Shown piece after piece: positions 682 through 9,355 of a stretch of 64,000 nt of DNA. How positions within the stretch are numbered: the stretch's first letter is position 1; each line of letters opens with the position of its first letter. The notes beneath the pieces are model-generated. The model saw only the letters and a list, made by a program, of their open reading frames with translations. It had not been told where the DNA came from and searched no databases. Origin of the DNA: Plicaturopsis crispa FD-325 SS-3 (Eukaryota > Basidiomycota > Agaricomycetes > Amylocorticiales > Amylocorticiaceae); NCBI GenBank assembly GCA_000827205.1, contig KN832555.1, positions 3,026,669 to 3,090,668 on the forward strand, given 5' to 3'. The position numbers and the translations under genes were made by a program.

Positions 682-779
682 ATTGAATTTCGTGCTCGAG
701 TATAGCGCTCAAGTCGAGGACTCGCCTGTATAATTTTATCGCGAACGAACGCCGATTGATCGAAGATTTCCTCCTCCCG

Positions 780-1100
780 ATTCCGCGGCGGTTAACAAAT
801 TAACTTGGCAAATTGACTTATCCCTTACAAAATCAACTTAGCTTAGCTTTTCGCAGCATAAGTTGATTTGTCCAGTTAACTTGACGCTAGCTTTAAGCTA
901 ACAATTCAGCTTGAGGCCTACTGGGCCATGTCCGTGTTATCTGTGGTGCGTATTCCCTCCGAAACGGCCAAGGCAAACATATTTCCACGAGGCGCAGCTG
1001 CAAATTCCCCGGCAAGAACATGAACGGATGTTCGAACCTGCAAAGACCGTATATCCATTACTAACTTATGCTGACTTACGGTAGCTTACAGTCATTGCAG
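780..1100. repeat. Left subterminal repeat cluster of putative DNA transposon
   Basis: AT-rich stretch with many degenerate copies of a short motif around TTAACTT, GACTTAT and AACTTAGCTTAG in both orientations. The same motif family recurs at 7,640-7,860 and, mostly in opposite orientation, at about 8,915-9,130. The outer edges share TTGACTTAT followed by YCC in inverted orientation (about 810-822 and, reverse-complemented, about 9,095-9,108). Clustered subterminal motifs of this kind are typical transposase-binding regions of large DNA transposons; the exact termini and target-site duplication could not be fixed by eye. Confidence 0.5.
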
Positions 1101-2010
1101 TGAGCGTAGACACTCTCCAGGGCGACGAAATGCATTAAATATTGCCCGTGAATGCTTGAGCAAGTTTCCGCTAGGCAGTGGGCGCTTATGGGCGCCACAT
1201 TTTTGACTGGCCCTTAAGCGGCGTCGCATGTTCATCGACCCAGCGAACAACGTTGTTCCTCACGGTGCTGCGTCTCAGCCTTACGCACTCGAAAATGCTT
1301 AATGATTGTCCATGCTGTCCGTCGCAGCCTGCAGTGAAAGTGCCGTGCCACCTATGACTAGCAGTAAGGGCTTGAGCTGCGAGCAACTACTAATGATCGT
1401 TGTCGAGCCATGCAGACTTCGACAATCCGCTGAGCGGCGCTGGTACGTTGCCCAATTTTTTCTTACGAGTTCTATAGCCTAATGATTCGTGTGTACTGGT
1501 TCAGGACACTGCACATTGCGTACCCGGTCATTACTGTAATGGCACGGGAACACGCCGCAGGAGCAACCTGAGTTGAAGACTTAGCGCATTCCGGGCGTTG
1601 CCTAAGCGCGAGATCAGGAATTTCGATTCGCGAGTTCGTCTGCCTGCTAACCAGCAGGAAAGCAATCATTTCCTTGCAAAGCCCCAAGGCGGCAGGCGCA
1701 CCCGAAGATCTGAGCAAGCCTTGCTGTACAGTGCGTGTATGACTTGTACAAGTAGCTGCTAGAGCTGACAGCTATCGGCAGACCCATAGCGCAGTACAAA
1801 ACACGTCGAGTCGAGGATGCATACACCGGTATGACCCATCATCGAGGCGCATCGGTGTTGTCAAGTCCTGAATCTGAACGATCGGTGTCTACAAAAGGTA
1901 ACATAAATTTGGTTCCGTCTTACATGATGTGCACGCTGACGCTTTTCTTTCGATGCCCTCGCCCCCTTCTCCGACGTTTTCACTGCTCTGATTTGTACTG
2001 CCAGCTCAAG
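1101..2010. other. No gene recognised (leader of the putative transposon)
   Basis: Only short ORFs without recognisable motifs are present on either strand. A few more TAACTTA/GACTTA-like words occur near 1,062-1,090. I infer that this is the non-coding left part of the element that carries the transposase gene. Confidence 0.4.
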
Positions 2011-5000
2011 ATGTTTCGGAAGATCCTCAATTGGTTTAGGCCTGGGCAAGCATCCGACCCTCCCTACCGCGATCAGGTTCCACGACAAAACGGAGAAGGT
2101 ATGTAGAGACACGTTGAGGCCTTTCTCGTGTGAGGCTCACACCGTGCCGACAGACCCTCGTACTGCCTACGGACTCAATCATCCGTACTACGCGGCACCA
2201 TATCCTGGTCCTCCACCGTCGGCCCCTCCCTATCCGTATTTCGACCCACGCGACCCGTTACAACTAGGTCAATATCCGCCCCATCGTAGGCAGCAAAATC
2301 TGCCGTCAAATGGTAGTCAATACCCTGCAGTGCCCAGCTTACATGCGGATGTAGCGGCGAATTTCCCAAACGGCTGTAAGTGAGCTACCCAAGTGTCCTG
2401 GCTCGTATCTGATTGCTTTTTGCACATATTAGACGCGATACCACGTCACATGCAGGCCCAAAATGGTTTCTATCCCCCGCATACTTTCTCCCCGTATTAT
2501 CAGCCCTCTTATCCGACCGCCGCCTCTCCATACATGAATATGTTCGGACAGCCCATGTATCATCCCCCAAACCATGCGCTGCCTCCGCCAACAGAGCTTA
2601 CTGGTTCGAACGTGCGTATTTCTGGTGACCCCGCATCCTCCGACCCTCCGCCGCTAGGCCACACTGAGCGAGGGGGAGACAATGGGCTGGGGACTCCGAT
2701 GGTCGACCCCGAGGATCCATCATCTAACGATGGTCAGTTTATTTGTGCAATCTTATTCTATGAATCTAACTCCGTGCGTTTGACTCAGACTGGCCGGTCG
2801 GCTATCATAGGCGCGAGCAGCCTAAGGGCAACGAGACACCGCTCTGGAAGCACACGAAGTGGGTGTGGCGATCACAAGGGCACGTCACGCACAATGACGC
2901 ACCCGCGGAACGTCGCGTTTGCTTGGGTGTCATGAGGTGTAATACCTGCGGTCGTCTCTCACGGCCGAAGACAGAGGCTGGCGCACGACAAATCCAGTTA
3001 TCTGAGGGGTGCAGAGCTCCAGGCTGTGTTGAGTCGCAAGACAGTCCCCTGCTACATGAAACCTGCGACGCAAAGTCTTTCCATTTCACCGTGCGCAGGC
3101 AGGGGAGGGCGTACCTCGTCTGGGAGCATTTCGGCATGCACGATCATGATCGCCCACCCGGTGGTGGCCTCTCAAGGACGCAGGAGCTTGCGGTCGATGC
3201 ACAGGTCCTTCGTCATCAGAATGCGAGTGCTCACCAGCTTCGCACTGGTGATAGCGGACCCGGCTCAGTGCCCTTGGCCGCAATCGCGCCTCCTCTTGCG
3301 AATCCCCGCACTGCTCGATACCAGATCAGCAAAAGTCAGTCGCGGGTTGGCATCCAGCCCTCCTCTGGCAAAGGCGGTCTATCCGTTCTCCATGAGCTCG
3401 GCGCGGTCAACGAGAAATTGGGGTCGACCTTTCTCATTGATTCCGGCCTCCTCGGTCCAACATACATCACCCTTCAGACCTCTTTCATGGACACCTGCAT
3501 ACGCGAGGCCGTCGAGGCATGGATTGAGGACCGAGAAGATAGCCCTGTCTCCTCCCGTCACGGATTCGTTACCGATGGAGACCATACATTCTTCCGTAGC
3601 GGAAATCTTCTTACGACGTGCTCGTTTAATACCACTATGCAAGCCTGGGTCCCTGTCCTTTACTCATGGATCGATGGCCTCGATACCGCACATCACCAGC
3701 CACATTTCAAGGCCCTTTTCAACTCTGTAGTGAAGCATGCTGGAAAGCGCTTCAAGAAGGAGTATCTTACGCATGTGAGTTCTGACAGTGTTGTCCGCAT
3801 CGTGAGAAGTACACTTAATGTCGCCTAGATTATGGATTTTTCTGTTGCGCAACGTAATGCACACGCGGAGGAATACGCCAGCGTCATGCTTTCGCGTCTT
3901 CCATCTGTCCATGATCTATCCAATGAAGCCATCGCTGTCGAACGCCGTCGATATATCGAGGAAGCTCGTGCAGCCGAGATTGGATGCGAGACTCATTTTT
4001 ATCGCTCCTCGACACGCTTGAAGAAGAACGGCCTACTTGTCCCCCCAGCGCTCATTAACACCTTCGACGACTACATCCGGCAGCTGATGTCAGTAGACAC
4101 GGATGATGCTCAGTTTGCCGCCGTCGTCCGAGACTTCAACGTTGATTTCCCCCGGTGCCACGGATGGCTGAAGTGGTGGCTACGTCCCACCATCGCATCC
4201 ATGATATTTGCTTCGAAGCGTGTTATGGAGTCTGAGCTTATGAAGAAATACCCAACCAGCTCCAATCCTGTTGAACACCAGCACTCACTTCTTCATCATG
4301 CGACACAAATCGACAATGATCTCATTCCGGGGATAAAAGGCCTTTATCTGCATATTCGCGAACTCGAAGAACAGTACAATGCCATCCGTGGTAAGTTTAG
4401 CCAACCTTCCCTTATCTCCGTGAAGTGAAATCGGAACTCATGTCGTCTTTCTACTAGCTGGACACTTCAACCCGGAGGAGCCGCGCAAAAAGTCTCGTCC
4501 GGCTAGGCCACACTGGGACGCTAACGATGGGCGAGCTCCGGATACGTACGAGGCACTGGCAACGACTTCAGCAATGCATCATGATGCTGCCGCTGACCCT
4601 TCGCATACTCGGGCTGTAGTCATTCCGGAGCGTCTACTGGTCTCGTATCGGTGGGATGTCAACTCTTGCTTCTTTGACTCCAGTCTTCAGCTTTGGTTTC
4701 ATGCCTATTATTTGTGGTCACCGGAGACCCGGGAAACCATCGTTGCGGCACTGGGTAGTAAACCCGTCATCAGCTCGATCTTCTATCACTTCCTTCGCCG
4801 GTTACAGTGGATTACTAAGCCATCCCTAGATGACCTGGTGGGTCGGCGGGAGCTTGATCTCATGCAACGCCTTGTACGCCATGCTATCTTTGGAAAATGG
4901 AAGCTTTATCCTAATCCAAAGAGCTATGGCTGCGCAAAACGGTGGTTACGCCATGCTGTCCAGGTATGATACTATGATGCATCTATCAACCAGTTATATG

Positions 5001-7578
5001 TGCTAACAGACACGCAGGAATTGGACGAAGATACTCAAAGGCATTTCAGTGTCCAGCACACCTCTGTTATGATGTGTCCAAAAGGTCATATATTGCTGCT
5101 GCCTGCGTCAAGTCCGGTACTCTTTTTACGCATAACCAAACGTGACGTGGACACACTCCGACATGTTTACGGTACCACGGGTGGCAAGATCACCACAGAA
5201 CAATACTTCCAACATTTTGTACCCCAAATTGACGTTAGCGAAGACAGTGGTCGTACGATTCCCGTACACACCCTCTACTCCAAGGACCTGGTACCTTGTG
5301 GCCACCGCCATTGCCAGGATACTGTGTCCATCTCAGACATCCAGACATCTTGGCCGCAGCTCCTTCATATCATCCCCGAACCCCTCGTCCATCATGTATC
5401 CAGCACCGATTTTGCGGCAAGTAATCCGCTACACTACGAGCGGACATTTTGCATCTCCAATGATGCGGAAAATCACGAGCAAGTCCAGTACGAGCTTGTC
5501 GGGCGCGTCCTATATCTGGAGAAGCCCTCCCACTTTGTCACGCAGATGCTGTTGGGCAATCGGACGGTCCGATACGATGATATGGATGATCTTCTAGTGG
5601 ATTCCGGCCCTTCCTCTATCCTAGAGAAGCCAAACAGGCACACATCATTTCTCCTATACCACCGTATCTCAAAAGTGCAGGTGAGCCACATAGTTCCCTT
5701 GAGACCTATTCAAGTCATTGACCCATTTGATCATAGACCTCAACACAAACTATCGAGACCATAACGAGCAACTACAATAAAGCCCCACCATAAATTCGAC
5801 AACGCTCCGTAACCGTATCCTCCGACCATTCTTCCGAGCTGCATCTACCTTCATCGGGTGAGCAGTGGGGTACACCACCTGACCTTTCGCCGGCACCTAG
5901 TATTCCTGATACAGACTTTGGAGTATTCGATCTACTAGATCAGCCAGACCCAGCCCGTGGCCTGATTTTGAGCGGTCAAGGTGATCATCCAAGTCGCAGT
6001 CCCTCTCCTTGGGATATCAAGTGTGCAGGGTGCGGTTTTGTTGGTGACGGACATACCATTGATGATGCTGCAGAATCCACACTGCAGTGTGACGCTTGCC
6101 ACACGTGGCTGCATATAAAATGCATGACAGACCTGTTTGACTTGCCTGCGAACTACGCCGATGAAGATTACCCCTGGATATGCCCCCGGTGCTCCGGAAA
6201 GCCATTATGGAATGATACCTAGTGAGCAACTGTGACACGACCGTATATCTACAAGTTAGATGCCTATCTGACCATTTGGATTGATTCACAAATTAGCATT
6301 GGCCAGCATATACTGCTAGTCACACGATCTGATAGCAGGCTATATCCTGTCAAGATCGTAAAGAGACGTGGAAATATGGTAGACCTCGAATGGCATCCGG
6401 GCAATGTCTACGCTCGCGGTGAAAACCCGCGTGGAAACTTGCAGCGGACTACCCAGTTGTGTGTCCGCTTACACGCAGGTGCTGCACGGCCTACTGGCAA
6501 TGGGCGGAATCAAAATAACGTATGTCCCACTTTACAAAGTTGATCTCCGAGATCGGCGGCTGAAATCTGCCAGAACATTATGCGGGAAATTCTGTGGCCA
6601 GTACGCCTAAGCGAAGATTCCGCTGAGCGGCACGGATACGTGAATGAGCCAATCACGCTTGCACTCGAGTCCGCTGCATCAGCTGTCCTTGATGCGCTAC
6701 TTGGACTGCAGCCCGCCGGAGGTAAACACCTGGTCATGGTGATGTTCGGACAGTGGATGGGAGAGTTACCGCCTGACGACCCGGACCCGGAGCCAGACAG
6801 TACCGATGCAGGACCAAAGGCCATGGAGGTGCCGCGTCCAGAATTCGTGCCCAAGAAGTTGAGAGGCATGGCACGCATGCATCGTGCAAGCGACTTCCAC
6901 ACCAAACACCGTGTTCCCATCTTGCCCGGTGACCGGTCTCTCTGCTTCAATATCTTATATTGCATAAGGGTTCACCTCGGCATGTCACTGGACTCTTTAG
7001 ATGACCTCCTCATCCCTGCCGAAACGATGTTGCATCTCGTGATTCTTCGCACCTATCTCAATCGGACACCCTCCGATGATGACCAGATAGCCACTCTCTT
7101 CAAGAAAGGCCACTTTCGACGCATTCTTACCATCCACGAGCAGGCACTGATTGCATGTCATGCGTACGATGAGCACGACACTACGGACCCGTCAATTGTC
7201 CCACAATTCAGTGGTCCGGGGGCCTGTGCAACGAGGCCAAAGCATACGAAGGAACTTGACATTTCGAGTGCCTTTCCTCTAATTACAATCGAGCCGCCGC
7301 ACATCTGGGAGGCAAGCGACTCTACCGGACTCTCCGGTGGCCGTCCGTATGCGGAACTCTCCCGGAAGAACTCGCTGGCTGGTCCCCCCGCCGGACCACG
7401 ACCGAAACCAAAGATGAAGAGACGCCGTCGTCCCAGTCCTGTCGAGAACAACGAGGTCAATCCCGCGCCAGTGAGTGTGATAGATGAACAGGCGCAGCCT
7501 GCAGCAGATGACGCCAACCCTGCCGTGCGGAGAAGCAAACGCCTCAGATCCAATGCAGCGGGCGCAAGTTTGAAGTGA
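2011..7578 (+). CDS. Chimeric transposase-like gene: GCM/WRKY-type Zn cluster, DDE core, USP-like region, PHD finger
   Basis: Long multi-exon gene. Supported exons: about 2114-2375, 2433-2732, 2789-3774, 3829-4390, 4458-4973, 5018-5680, 5839-6221, 6297 to about 6440, and about 6570-7578; the first exon and the 6.44-6.57 kb join are unresolved. Order of parts: Pro/Tyr-rich N-terminus; a GCM/WRKY-like Cys cluster (RVCLGVMRCNTCGR at 2917-2958, further Cys/His to about 3,150, ending WEHFGMHDHDRPP); a DDE-like core with acidic residues in FVTDGDHTFF (3,567-3,596), around FNVDFPRCHGW and in TSNPVEHQHS (4,255-4,284); a C19/USP-like region with Cys box VNSCFFDSSLQ (4,657-4,689) and His/Asp box SHFVTQMLLG...VRYDDM (5,530-5,583); a PHD finger with C4HC3 spacing (6,022-6,192); a Tudor/chromo-like strand segment DLEWHPGNVYARG; and a basic C-terminal tail. 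The combination and flanking repeats suggest a MULE-type DNA transposon. The functional reading is inference; a domesticated gene is the alternative. Confidence 0.7.
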
Positions 7579-7629
7579 TGCGGGTTGACCCTACGGTTTT
7601 CGACTTGGATTCCTGGGTTATCGAGCACT

Positions 7630-7865
7630 AGGTTGATAATGTAGTACTGTTAGCCTCATCGGTGTACACGTTAACTTATAAGCTAGCTTACTACGAGTCG
7701 GCAAGTTAACTTATATACGCAACTTGTCGTAACTTATCTGTCTAATCTACGTGTTAACTTATGCACTTGACGGTCACTTAACTTATTCACTTAGCTTTTG
7801 TAGGACTGAACTGCATGCTAACTTATCAAATTAGCTTATGATATTAAAGCTGTTCCCGAACGTGA
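7630..7865. repeat. Internal/right TTAACTTA repeat cluster
   Basis: At least seven near-copies of TTAACTTA or TAACTTAT, all on the plus strand, interspersed with AGCTTA words, begin about 60 bp after the transposase stop codon. The motif matches the left cluster at 780-1,100. It may be the original right end of the element, with the 7.9-9.1 kb part being captured or nested DNA, or an internal binding array. Confidence 0.5.
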
Positions 7866-7959
7866 GCCTACAGCACTACAAGTATATTTTAGATGACTTT
7901 ACCGTGCCGTGCATGTGTCTGCTCCACACGTCCGTGTAGTAGAGACTGCACTGAGGTGG

Positions 7960-8420
7960 AAACTGTCTGACAACGGCAAGGGCAAGGCCAGAGCAGAACC
8001 CGGCGAGCCCAGCCCCGTACGCTCCGAGAAAGAAATTGCCGACGCACTGCACACCATCGAGACCATCCGACATCGACACCGCCTTCACCTCCCTCCACTC
8101 CGACTTCACCTTCCCCGCGCGCCTCGCCCTCCGCGCCCGTCACGGACACGAAGCTCGCGTACACCGCTGCGAACGCGCCGGTGCGCTACTACGAGCATGC
8201 GCTGAGCCAGCTGCTGTCGAAGCTCGATGCGGTGGAGAGCGCGGGAAGCGAGGACGTGCGCGCGTGAAGGAAGGTGGTGGTGGCGCGCGTGGAGCGGGCA
8301 CTGGAGGAGGTGGAGAGGGAGGTTAGTGGGAGGATGGGCGCATGGAAGGCAAGGAATGGGGTGCAGGCGGAGAAGGAGGTGGAGGCACCTGTGGCGGAGC
8401 AGGGCAAAGATCACTGCAGT
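7960..8420 (+). pseudogene. Broken BAG-domain (Hsp70 co-chaperone) gene fragment
   Basis: Pieced together across frames, this stretch reads as a fungal BAG-domain region: DALHTIETIR, then after a frame change DIDTAFTSLHSDFTFPARL, then after a second change TKLAYTAANAPVRYYEHALSQ followed by LLSKLDAVESAG, then an in-frame TGA (8,265-8,267), then KVVVARVERALEEVEREV. BAG domains bind the Hsp70 ATPase domain and act as nucleotide-exchange factors. Two frameshifts and a stop within about 450 bp indicate a decayed copy. It lies between the inner and outer repeat clusters of the putative transposon, so it could be a captured host fragment or a host gene destroyed by insertion. Identification rests on remembered family patterns; an alignment would settle it. 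Confidence 0.72.
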
Positions 8421-8910
8421 AAACCGTTAGTGAACAGCCAAGGCAAGGGGAGGAACTCAGGACGAACAGGACCACCGCGGGAGACGAGAATTCAGCCTCG
8501 ATGCGGACAAAGTCGGACGCGCTTTGTACGACCTGCTCACCATGAATCGTGTAGGCGAAGCTACGGTCCTCGACATGGGACGGGGTTGTCGCGCGCGTCA
8601 CCGTTGAGCGCCCACGCATGTGCACGGTCTTGCATTCGGACTGGCATTCGGTGCGTAGCAGCGTTGTTAGTATTGGCACCACATGCAGCTCGAGGAGGAC
8701 GGGCAACTTACGCGCATGGAAGCGGAACGACTGAGCACCGCGAGCTTGCATCAACATATGTGCCTGGAAAAGACCCAACGGGGTTGAGCACTGCAGATAT
8801 GGATGCACTCGCTAATGTCGGTGTAGCCTGAGAGGACGACATGAACATCGACGGTCAGCGTTTGACAGAGCGATCGACGGTGCGGACTCAGCGGTAACAT
8901 ACTTTTGTCA
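8421..8910. other. No gene recognised
   Basis: ORFs on both strands overlap here, but none shows a recognisable motif or convincing amino-acid composition. The stretch may be the eroded 3' continuation of the BAG gene fragment. Confidence 0.3.
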
Positions 8911-8914
8911 TCTT

Positions 8915-9135
8915 CTGCGCGGTCAACTTACTGCAGGTCCATCACCGACATATCGCACCTTTGGGCCCTGAGTAAGACTCTTGCCAGGATATTACAGCGC
9001 TCGAGGGAGTATACAGTGAAAGCCAAGTTACATTGTTCAAGCGTGAGATAAGTCAAGTGAAAGCTAGCATAAGCTATCGTGCCAAAATTCATGCTGGAAT
9101 AAGTCAATAAGTTAGCCCGATAAGTAACTTTATAC
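8915..9135. repeat. Right outer subterminal repeat cluster
   Basis: Copies of the ACTTAT/AAGTCAA family recur here mainly in minus orientation: GATAAGTCAAGTG, GAATAAGTCAATAAGTTAG and GATAAGTAAC. The reverse complement resembles the outermost left cluster (shared TTGACTTATYCC). I infer the right end of the transposon, about 220 bp before the UNC-45 start codon. Confidence 0.45.
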
Positions 9136-9355
9136 ACAATCCGATTCCGCTCGCGTGCTCCGCTGCTGCCTCTTGCTTTGGACCACCTCAATTCCTTATT
9201 TTCTCTTCATCTGCGCACACGGAACGCGCGACTGTAGGCACTCTATCGCTCTACGGAGTATCTTTGAGTGGGCGAATCTTGGTGTAGTGGTCAGTCAAGC
9301 ATCGTTCTGCCAATCCACTAATTCTCGATCTTTTTTGCATAGCTATATCGCAGCC

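What the first reader, a model, noticed from the sequence alone, without database searches (positions are those of the whole stretch)
2011..7578. Chimeric transposase gene joining GCM Zn cluster, DDE core, USP-like peptidase region and PHD finger
One gene appears to carry a GCM/WRKY-type DNA-binding Cys cluster, three acidic residues placed as in MULE DDE transposases (VTDGDH, the FNVDF region, TSNPVE), a deubiquitinase-like Cys box (VNSCFFDSSLQ) with a later His-Phe and Tyr-Asp-Asp box, a PHD finger (C4HC3) and a Tudor/chromo-like strand. Each block is seen in the translation; the family names are from established knowledge; that they form one transposase protein is inference. A mobile element that brings its own chromatin reader and peptidase could manipulate host ubiquitin or histone marks.
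Basis: partly seen in the sequence, partly recalled or inferred. Interest (0 to 1): 0.8.

Follow-up and report, generated by a model that had tools for sequence, protein, structure and literature searches.

The report
Jumping gene with built-in deubiquitinase
A mushroom genome carries a mobile DNA element whose one large gene joins a DNA-cutting transposase to a ubiquitin-removing-enzyme fold and a histone-tail-reading finger, a combination shared by related genes in other mushrooms, which suggests that some jumping genes bring their own tools for handling the host cell.

The parts
778..786 (.). left copy of the 9-bp target-site duplication CGATTCCGC
   Evidence: identical to 9142-9150
787..9141 (+). 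the transposon, 8,355 bp, starts GGCGGTTAAC, ends TATACACAATC, no clear terminal inverted repeats
   Evidence: same ends on three other copies with both ends
787..912 (+). left end shared with non-autonomous copies (78-84% identical)
2011..7578 (+). gene; exons 2011-2098, 2154-2375, 2433-2732, 2789-3774, 3829-4390, 4458-4963, 5018-5680, 5866-6221, 6297-6519, 6574-7578; 1,636 aa with this splicing
   Evidence: exons 1-7 and the last part equal two deposited proteins
2791..3168 (+). GCM zinc DNA-binding domain (aa 205-330)
   Evidence: profile vs 1odh E=2.9e-13; Foldseek 5.9e-6
3391..4459 (+). DDE core, RNase H-like (aa 405-720), interrupted by two introns
   Evidence: model secondary structure; conservation
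3574..3576 (+). catalytic D466 (VTDGDH)
   Evidence: Asp in 72 of 73
   Evidence: Asp in 72 of 73
3985..3996 (+). C585-x2-H588 motif
   Evidence: 66 of 66 each
4273..4275 (+). catalytic E681 (NPVEHQH)
   Evidence: Glu in 71 of 71
4619..5680 (+). USP (peptidase C19) fold (aa 774-1109), interrupted by one intron
4667..4669 (+). USP nucleophile C790
   Evidence: Cys in 61 of 63; end-point offset equals USP30 C77 and USPL1 C236
5531..5533 (+). USP H1060
   Evidence: His in 50 of 53
5576..5578 (+). USP D1075
   Evidence: Asp 37, Asn 15 of 53
5791..5793 (+). in-frame TAA met if intron 5681-5736 is used
6022..6192 (+). PHD finger (aa 1162-1218)
   Evidence: PF00628 29 bits, cut-off 24
6214..6468 (+). 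Tudor/MBT-like barrel (aa 1226-1285), weak, interrupted by one intron
6511..7197 (+). helical C-terminal domain of unknown fold (aa 1300-1510), then basic tail
7948..8393 (+). captured fragment of a host BAG-domain gene, 86% identical
9020..9141 (+). right end shared with non-autonomous copies (74-76% identical)
9142..9150 (.). right copy of the 9-bp target-site duplication CGATTCCGC

Best explanation
A cut-and-paste DNA transposon that works like a Mutator-like element (MULE) and lacks clear terminal inverted repeats. Its single gene encodes a transposase with fused accessory domains. Likely action: the GCM domain recognises the element's ends; the RNase H-like DDE core (D466, D535, E681) cuts and joins DNA with a 9-bp stagger, which gives 9-bp target duplications; the USP domain removes ubiquitin or a ubiquitin-like tag, most likely from the transposase itself or from chromatin or repair proteins at the site; the PHD finger, perhaps with the Tudor-like barrel, tethers the complex to histone tails. 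Shown by computation: ends and duplications, non-autonomous siblings, domain order, USP and GCM folds, conserved catalytic residues. Inferred: the RNase H fold of the core, every biochemical step, the substrate of the peptidase and the histone mark. The local copy carries an in-frame TAA between USP and PHD and may now make only the GCM-DDE-USP part.
For: Both ends and a perfect 9-bp duplication in 4 of 4 copies that have both ends. Short copies share only the ends with the large element. D466 72/73, D535 72/73, E681 71/71, C585 and H588 66/66. First-to-second Asp spacing 69, as in the active MULE Muta1, D214-D283. GCM. USP fold; Cys 61/63, His 50/53, Asp or Asn 52/53. PHD. Same domain order in relatives. 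Captured BAG fragment, a habit for which MULEs are known (abstract of PMC6446971).
Against: No Pfam MULE match in the window exons at E up to 1, nor among the 25 of 30 families shown for 28 relatives. Profile comparison with two MULE proteins of the same genome was inconclusive. No clear terminal inverted repeats. Only one copy of the gene was found in this assembly (counts there are lower bounds). In-frame TAA. No solved RNase H fold appeared in the rows shown.
Confidence: 0.82

Rival explanations
1. The local copy is dead or truncated: the TAA ends the protein after the USP domain, and the PHD half is untranslated or a separate remnant, as the deposited two-gene annotation has it. This concerns this copy, not the family, and is compatible with the best explanation.
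For: In-frame TAA 5791-5793; the deposited models end there and restart inside the PHD finger. At this point 24 of the 36 relatives that a motif search picked out (of 80) fit the exon starting at 5737 better, 9 fit the exon-skipping form better and 3 tie; a few of the 36 rows are off-target matches. One copy found.
Against: A 185-nt GT..CAG intron 5681-5865 would remove the TAA in frame. Catalytic and zinc residues on both sides are intact and both halves stay open.
Confidence: 0.5
2. The gene is a domesticated host gene with transposase ancestry; its domains now serve a chromatin role.
For: One copy found in this genome; many deposited single models in other species.
Against: The gene sits inside a unit with a 9-bp duplication and ends shared with short mobile copies. 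Several species have four or five listed protein clusters (Agrocybe pediades 5; Favolaschia claudopus, Flammula alnicola and Ephemerocybe angulata 4 each). DDE residues are intact.
Confidence: 0.07
3. The core belongs to another DDE superfamily (Rehavkus-like, hAT-like or one not yet named) rather than to MULE; the mechanism is the same in outline.
For: No PF10551 match, no TIRs, inconclusive profile comparison. Rehavkus also has a PHD finger and 9-bp TSD (PMC6446971 table).
Against: D-D-CxxH-E pattern with Muta1-like spacing, 9-bp TSD, zinc finger of the GCM type; Curupira MULEs also lack TIRs.
Confidence: 0.25
4. The USP-like domain acts on SUMO or has another use (self-processing, binding only) rather than removing ubiquitin.
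Confidence: 0.35

Closest known systems
Mutator-like elements (MULEs), e.g. Muta1 and Curupira
   Same: zinc-finger N-terminus, D-D-CxxH-E pattern with the 69-residue D-D spacing of Muta1, 9-bp TSD, non-autonomous derivatives that share only ends (for Muta1), host-fragment capture; Curupira also has no TIRs
   Different: GCM finger, USP and PHD fused on, no PF10551 match. The words GCM, Ulp1, ubiquitin and peptidase do not occur in the main text of the 2019 MULE survey; I saw its section 6 part 1 of 2 and passages, not the whole table
Ginger1 and Mutator transposases with Ulp1, OTU or PHD (PMC2836005)
   Same: a transposase with a C-terminal protease of the ubiquitin/SUMO system; one Ginger1 family has Ulp1 and PHD, and the paper aligns Ulp1 and PHD domains of Ginger1 and Mutator transposases
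   Different: Ginger1 core is integrase-like (Gypsy type) with TIRs; the proteases are Ulp1 or OTU, not USP
Trichomonas vaginalis XP_001314237.1, transposase_11 with Peptidase C19 (in PMC2836005)
   Same: a C19 (USP) domain in one chain with a DDE transposase
   Different: another transposase family (IS4/transposase_11), a protist, no GCM or PHD stated
VTD deubiquitinases of Helentrons (PMC9741609)
   Same: deubiquitinase inside a transposon protein; proposed to protect transposition factors from degradation
   Different: another protease family with an Asp-x-His motif, rolling-circle transposons
USP30, Ubp8, USPL1 (USP family)
   Same: fold and Cys-His-Asp/Asn order
   Different: 9-17% identity in the rows shown; fused to a transposase

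Membership tests
MULE superfamily | D-D-E triad with CxxH between second D and E | tested here: met
   D466 72/73, D535 72/73, C585 and H588 66/66, E681 71/71; compared with Muta1 residues and spacing
MULE superfamily | target-site duplication of about 8-11 bp | tested here: met
   9 bp, perfect, in 4 of 4 copies with both ends
MULE superfamily | RNase H fold of the core | tested here: inconclusive
   strand/helix order and positions of D466, D535, E681 fit, but no transposase among the fold rows shown; segment not folded alone
MULE superfamily | match to the MULE profile PF10551 | tested here: inconclusive
   none in window exons at E up to 1; not among 25 of 30 families shown for 28 relatives at E up to 0.5; hhalign with two MULEs of this genome inconclusive
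MULE superfamily | terminal inverted repeats (usual, not obligatory: Curupira has none) | tested here: not met
   first and last bases do not pair; imperfect subterminal similarity reached by 1, 4, 15 and 25 of 300 shuffles in the four copies
MULE superfamily | placement in a tree of DDE cores | not tested
   no set of MULE cores was at hand
USP (peptidase C19) | USP catalytic fold | tested here: met
USP (peptidase C19) | Cys-His-Asp/Asn triad | tested here: met
   C790 61/63, H1060 50/53, position 1075 Asp or Asn 52/53; end-point offset, gaps not seen, puts C790 on USP30 C77 and USPL1 C236
USP (peptidase C19) | isopeptidase activity | not testable with these tools
   needs purified protein
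GCM domain (PF03615) | GCM zinc cluster and fold | tested here: met
   profile vs 1odh E=2.9e-13, Foldseek 5.9e-6; Pfam under its cut-off in this copy (15.1 of 25 bits), matched in 8 of 28 relatives at E up to 0.5
PHD finger (PF00628) | C4HC3 pattern and score over cut-off | tested here: met
   29 bits vs 24; 17 of 28 relatives match at E up to 0.5; ligand columns 33-41 of 34-41
H3K4me3-reading PHD fingers | cage Trp before the His (recalled) and methyl-lysine binding | tested here: inconclusive
   W1190 here, Trp in 19 of 34 relatives; TAF3 PHD among best profile matches; binding not testable
Tudor/MBT (royal) family | barrel fold | tested here: inconclusive
KDZ transposases (PF18758) | match to the KDZ profile | tested here: not met
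   none in window exons at E up to 1; a KDZ elsewhere in this genome gives 8e-60

The most novel reading that the evidence does not exclude
A self-contained chromatin-directed transposase: its PHD finger (and Tudor-like barrel) reads a promoter mark such as H3K4me3, and its USP domain strips ubiquitin from promoter chromatin (for example from H2B, as SAGA's Ubp8 does, by recall), so that the element enters, or escapes silencing at, gene starts. By my reading of ORF lists all five insertion sites have an ORF whose 5' side faces the element (Pfam supports such a gene at four of five, at one of them below its cut-off, and on both sides at two: TRM6/UNC45 and PX/pyrophosphatase). About 0.75^5 = 0.24 would be expected for random intergenic sites, so this is only compatible.
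Probability: 0.13. Interest if true: 0.85.

Novelty: new variant of a known kind. Interest (0 to 1): 0.56.

Why it matters
Ulp1, OTU, VTD and C19 proteases have been taken up by unrelated transposons. This adds a USP-type domain inside a MULE-like transposase, next to a histone-reading finger, in fixed order in 29 of 80 relatives. Repeated capture of such enzymes suggests that ubiquitin or SUMO signalling is a real obstacle to transposition. Because the ends, the target duplication and short non-autonomous copies are now defined, the roles of the peptidase and the PHD finger could be tested by mutation in a yeast assay like that used for Muta1. It also shows that the deposited annotation has the gene split in two and unnamed.
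Full report
What is there. The window lies in a 33.2-Mb, 49-contig assembly. The best protein match is the deposited Plicaturopsis crispa FD-325 SS-3 protein PLICRDRAFT_171919, 100% identical over the 891 residues searched, so I take the organism to be that mushroom. From ATG 2011 to the stop ending at 7578 I modelled ten exons with GT..AG introns of 54-75 nt, except one of 185 nt. Residues 1-1109 equal the deposited protein, and residues 1196-1636 equal a second one, PLICRDRAFT_421890. The public annotation therefore splits the gene.

The stop codon. With the 56-nt intron 5681-5736 of the deposited model, the frame meets TAA at 5791-5793 and that protein ends. To see what relatives do I picked rows with a motif (36 of 80 relatives; a few are off-target): 24 fit the exon beginning at 5737 better, 9 fit the exon-skipping form better and 3 tie. 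A 185-nt intron 5681-5865 would keep the frame. Without RNA I cannot decide between a nonsense mutation and alternative splicing.

DNA-binding domain. Residues 205-330 are a GCM zinc domain: profile of 43 sequences against mouse GCM1 (1odh) E=2.9e-13, Foldseek 5.9e-6, Cys/His columns nearly invariant (58-69 of 61-71). Pfam GCM stays under its cut-off in this copy (15.1 of 25 bits) and matches 8 of 28 relatives at E up to 0.5.

DDE core. Conserved residues are D466 (72 of 73), D535 (72 of 73), C585 and H588 (66 of 66 each) and E681 (71 of 71), with three Trp columns invariant in 71 of 71 before the Glu. In the AlphaFold2 model of P0001 (mean pLDDT 77.8; 574 of 1,127 residues at 90 or more) D466 is on the first of three strands, D535 follows the next strand and E681 is on a later helix behind a helical insertion, the order I expect of an RNase H fold. 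In the active MULE Muta1, alanine at D214, D283, E419, H307 or W401 abolishes activity (section read); its first two Asp are 69 residues apart, as here. Against this: no Pfam MULE match in the window exons, none among the 25 of 30 families shown for 28 relatives, an inconclusive comparison with two MULEs of this genome, and no transposase in the fold rows shown. 'MULE-like' is the fair term.

Is it one protein? Profiles of six segments, made from up to 42 of these sequences, were searched against 82 proteins. Of 80 relatives (the two deposited halves left out) 69 have GCM and DDE, 58 also USP, 31 also PHD, 29 also the Tudor-like segment and 27 all six; of 25 with 1,400 aa or more, 23 have the first five. 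Hits are partly by construction, and many relatives are partial or short models; 51 of 80 lack at least one of the five segments. No relative had the PHD without the USP, but the searches were anchored mainly on the N-terminal part. The 74 named proteins are from Agaricomycetes (class by recall). Some species have several listed clusters: Agrocybe pediades 5; Favolaschia claudopus, Flammula alnicola and Ephemerocybe angulata 4 each, as expected of a mobile family.

The element. Searches with the flanks found the left end at three further places and a fourth, and the right end at three. Comparison fixes the ends: GGCGGTTAAC at 787 and TATACACAATC ending at 9141, with the duplication CGATTCCGC at 778-786 and 9142-9150. 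The other copies with both ends are 883 bp (C2:1.396 Mb; CTTTCTATC), 912 bp (C2:0.852 Mb; CGAATTTAG) and one on C21 (GTCAGATAG) split by a 16.4-kb insert; all four duplications are perfect. The short copies share about 125 bp of left end and 120 bp of right end with the large element and are 80-98% like one another. The first and last bases do not form inverted repeats; imperfect subterminal similarity is reached by 1, 4, 15 and 25 of 300 shuffles in the four copies. A left end alone lies on C4.

Gene capture and site. Window 7948-8393 is 86% identical to part of a BAG-domain gene 0.43 Mb away. The element lies between TRM6 (Gcd10p family, minus) and an UNC45-type gene (plus); by my choice of start codons (about 680 and 9356) these are some 0.3 kb apart without it. 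A second copy lies between a PX-domain gene and a pyrophosphatase gene that point away from it. By eye, each of the five sites has an ORF whose 5' side faces the element; Pfam names such a gene at four (at C4 a desaturase under its cut-off). About 0.24 would be expected by chance for intergenic sites, so targeting is not shown.

How it most likely works. GCM binds the ends, the DDE core excises and inserts with a 9-bp stagger, the PHD finger tethers to histone tails, and the USP domain edits a ubiquitin-like mark on the transposase or on local chromatin or repair proteins. Architecture, ends and conserved residues are shown; each activity is inferred.

What is known. Ulp1 in Mutator and Ginger1, OTU in Ginger1 and Helitrons, Ulp1 with PHD, and Peptidase C19 with transposase_11 in Trichomonas are in PMC2836005 (passages and discussion section read); an OTU gene in MuDR-6_HM, a PHD finger in Rehavkus and a TIR-less MULE (Curupira) are in PMC6446971 (passages, abstract, section 6 part 1 of 2); VTD deubiquitinases of Helentrons are in PMC9741609 (passages); fungal transposons with TET/JBP in PMC12730594 (one passage; no occurrence of GCM, PHD, ubiquitin or protease). 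Ten searches of an open-access library listed no paper on a USP in a GCM/DDE transposase with PHD. I rate it a new variant of a known kind.

Noticed in passing
G000:C21:128452-145792 (L020, L021): A short copy of this family is split by a 16.4-kb insert that encodes a KDZ transposase (PF18758, E=8e-60): nesting of two transposon families. Part of the insert reads N.
   Followed up: partly
G000:C13:897127-897354 and C5:422915-423109 (L001, L002): Two MULE transposase loci (PF10551, the first over and the second under the cut-off) coexist in this genome.
   Followed up: partly
P0022 (Gloeophyllum trabeum) and P0082 (Mycena rosella): Deposited relatives that look like chimeric gene models or nested insertions: one is also tagged Hydantoinase_B, the other joins a piece of this DDE core to DUF6589.
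   Followed up: no
P0063 and P0065 (Mycena): Two relatives show GCM-DDE followed directly by the Tudor-like and C-terminal segments, without USP or PHD: partial models or a protease-free variant.
   Followed up: no
window 913-2010 and 8394-9019: About 1.7 kb of non-coding element DNA that the flank searches matched nowhere else in the assembly; origin unknown.
   Followed up: no
O92526 (Bracoviriform inaniti), structure-search hit: A 544-aa wasp-virus protein matches the model over 458 columns at E=3.6e-8; it might be a MULE-type transposase.
   Followed up: partly
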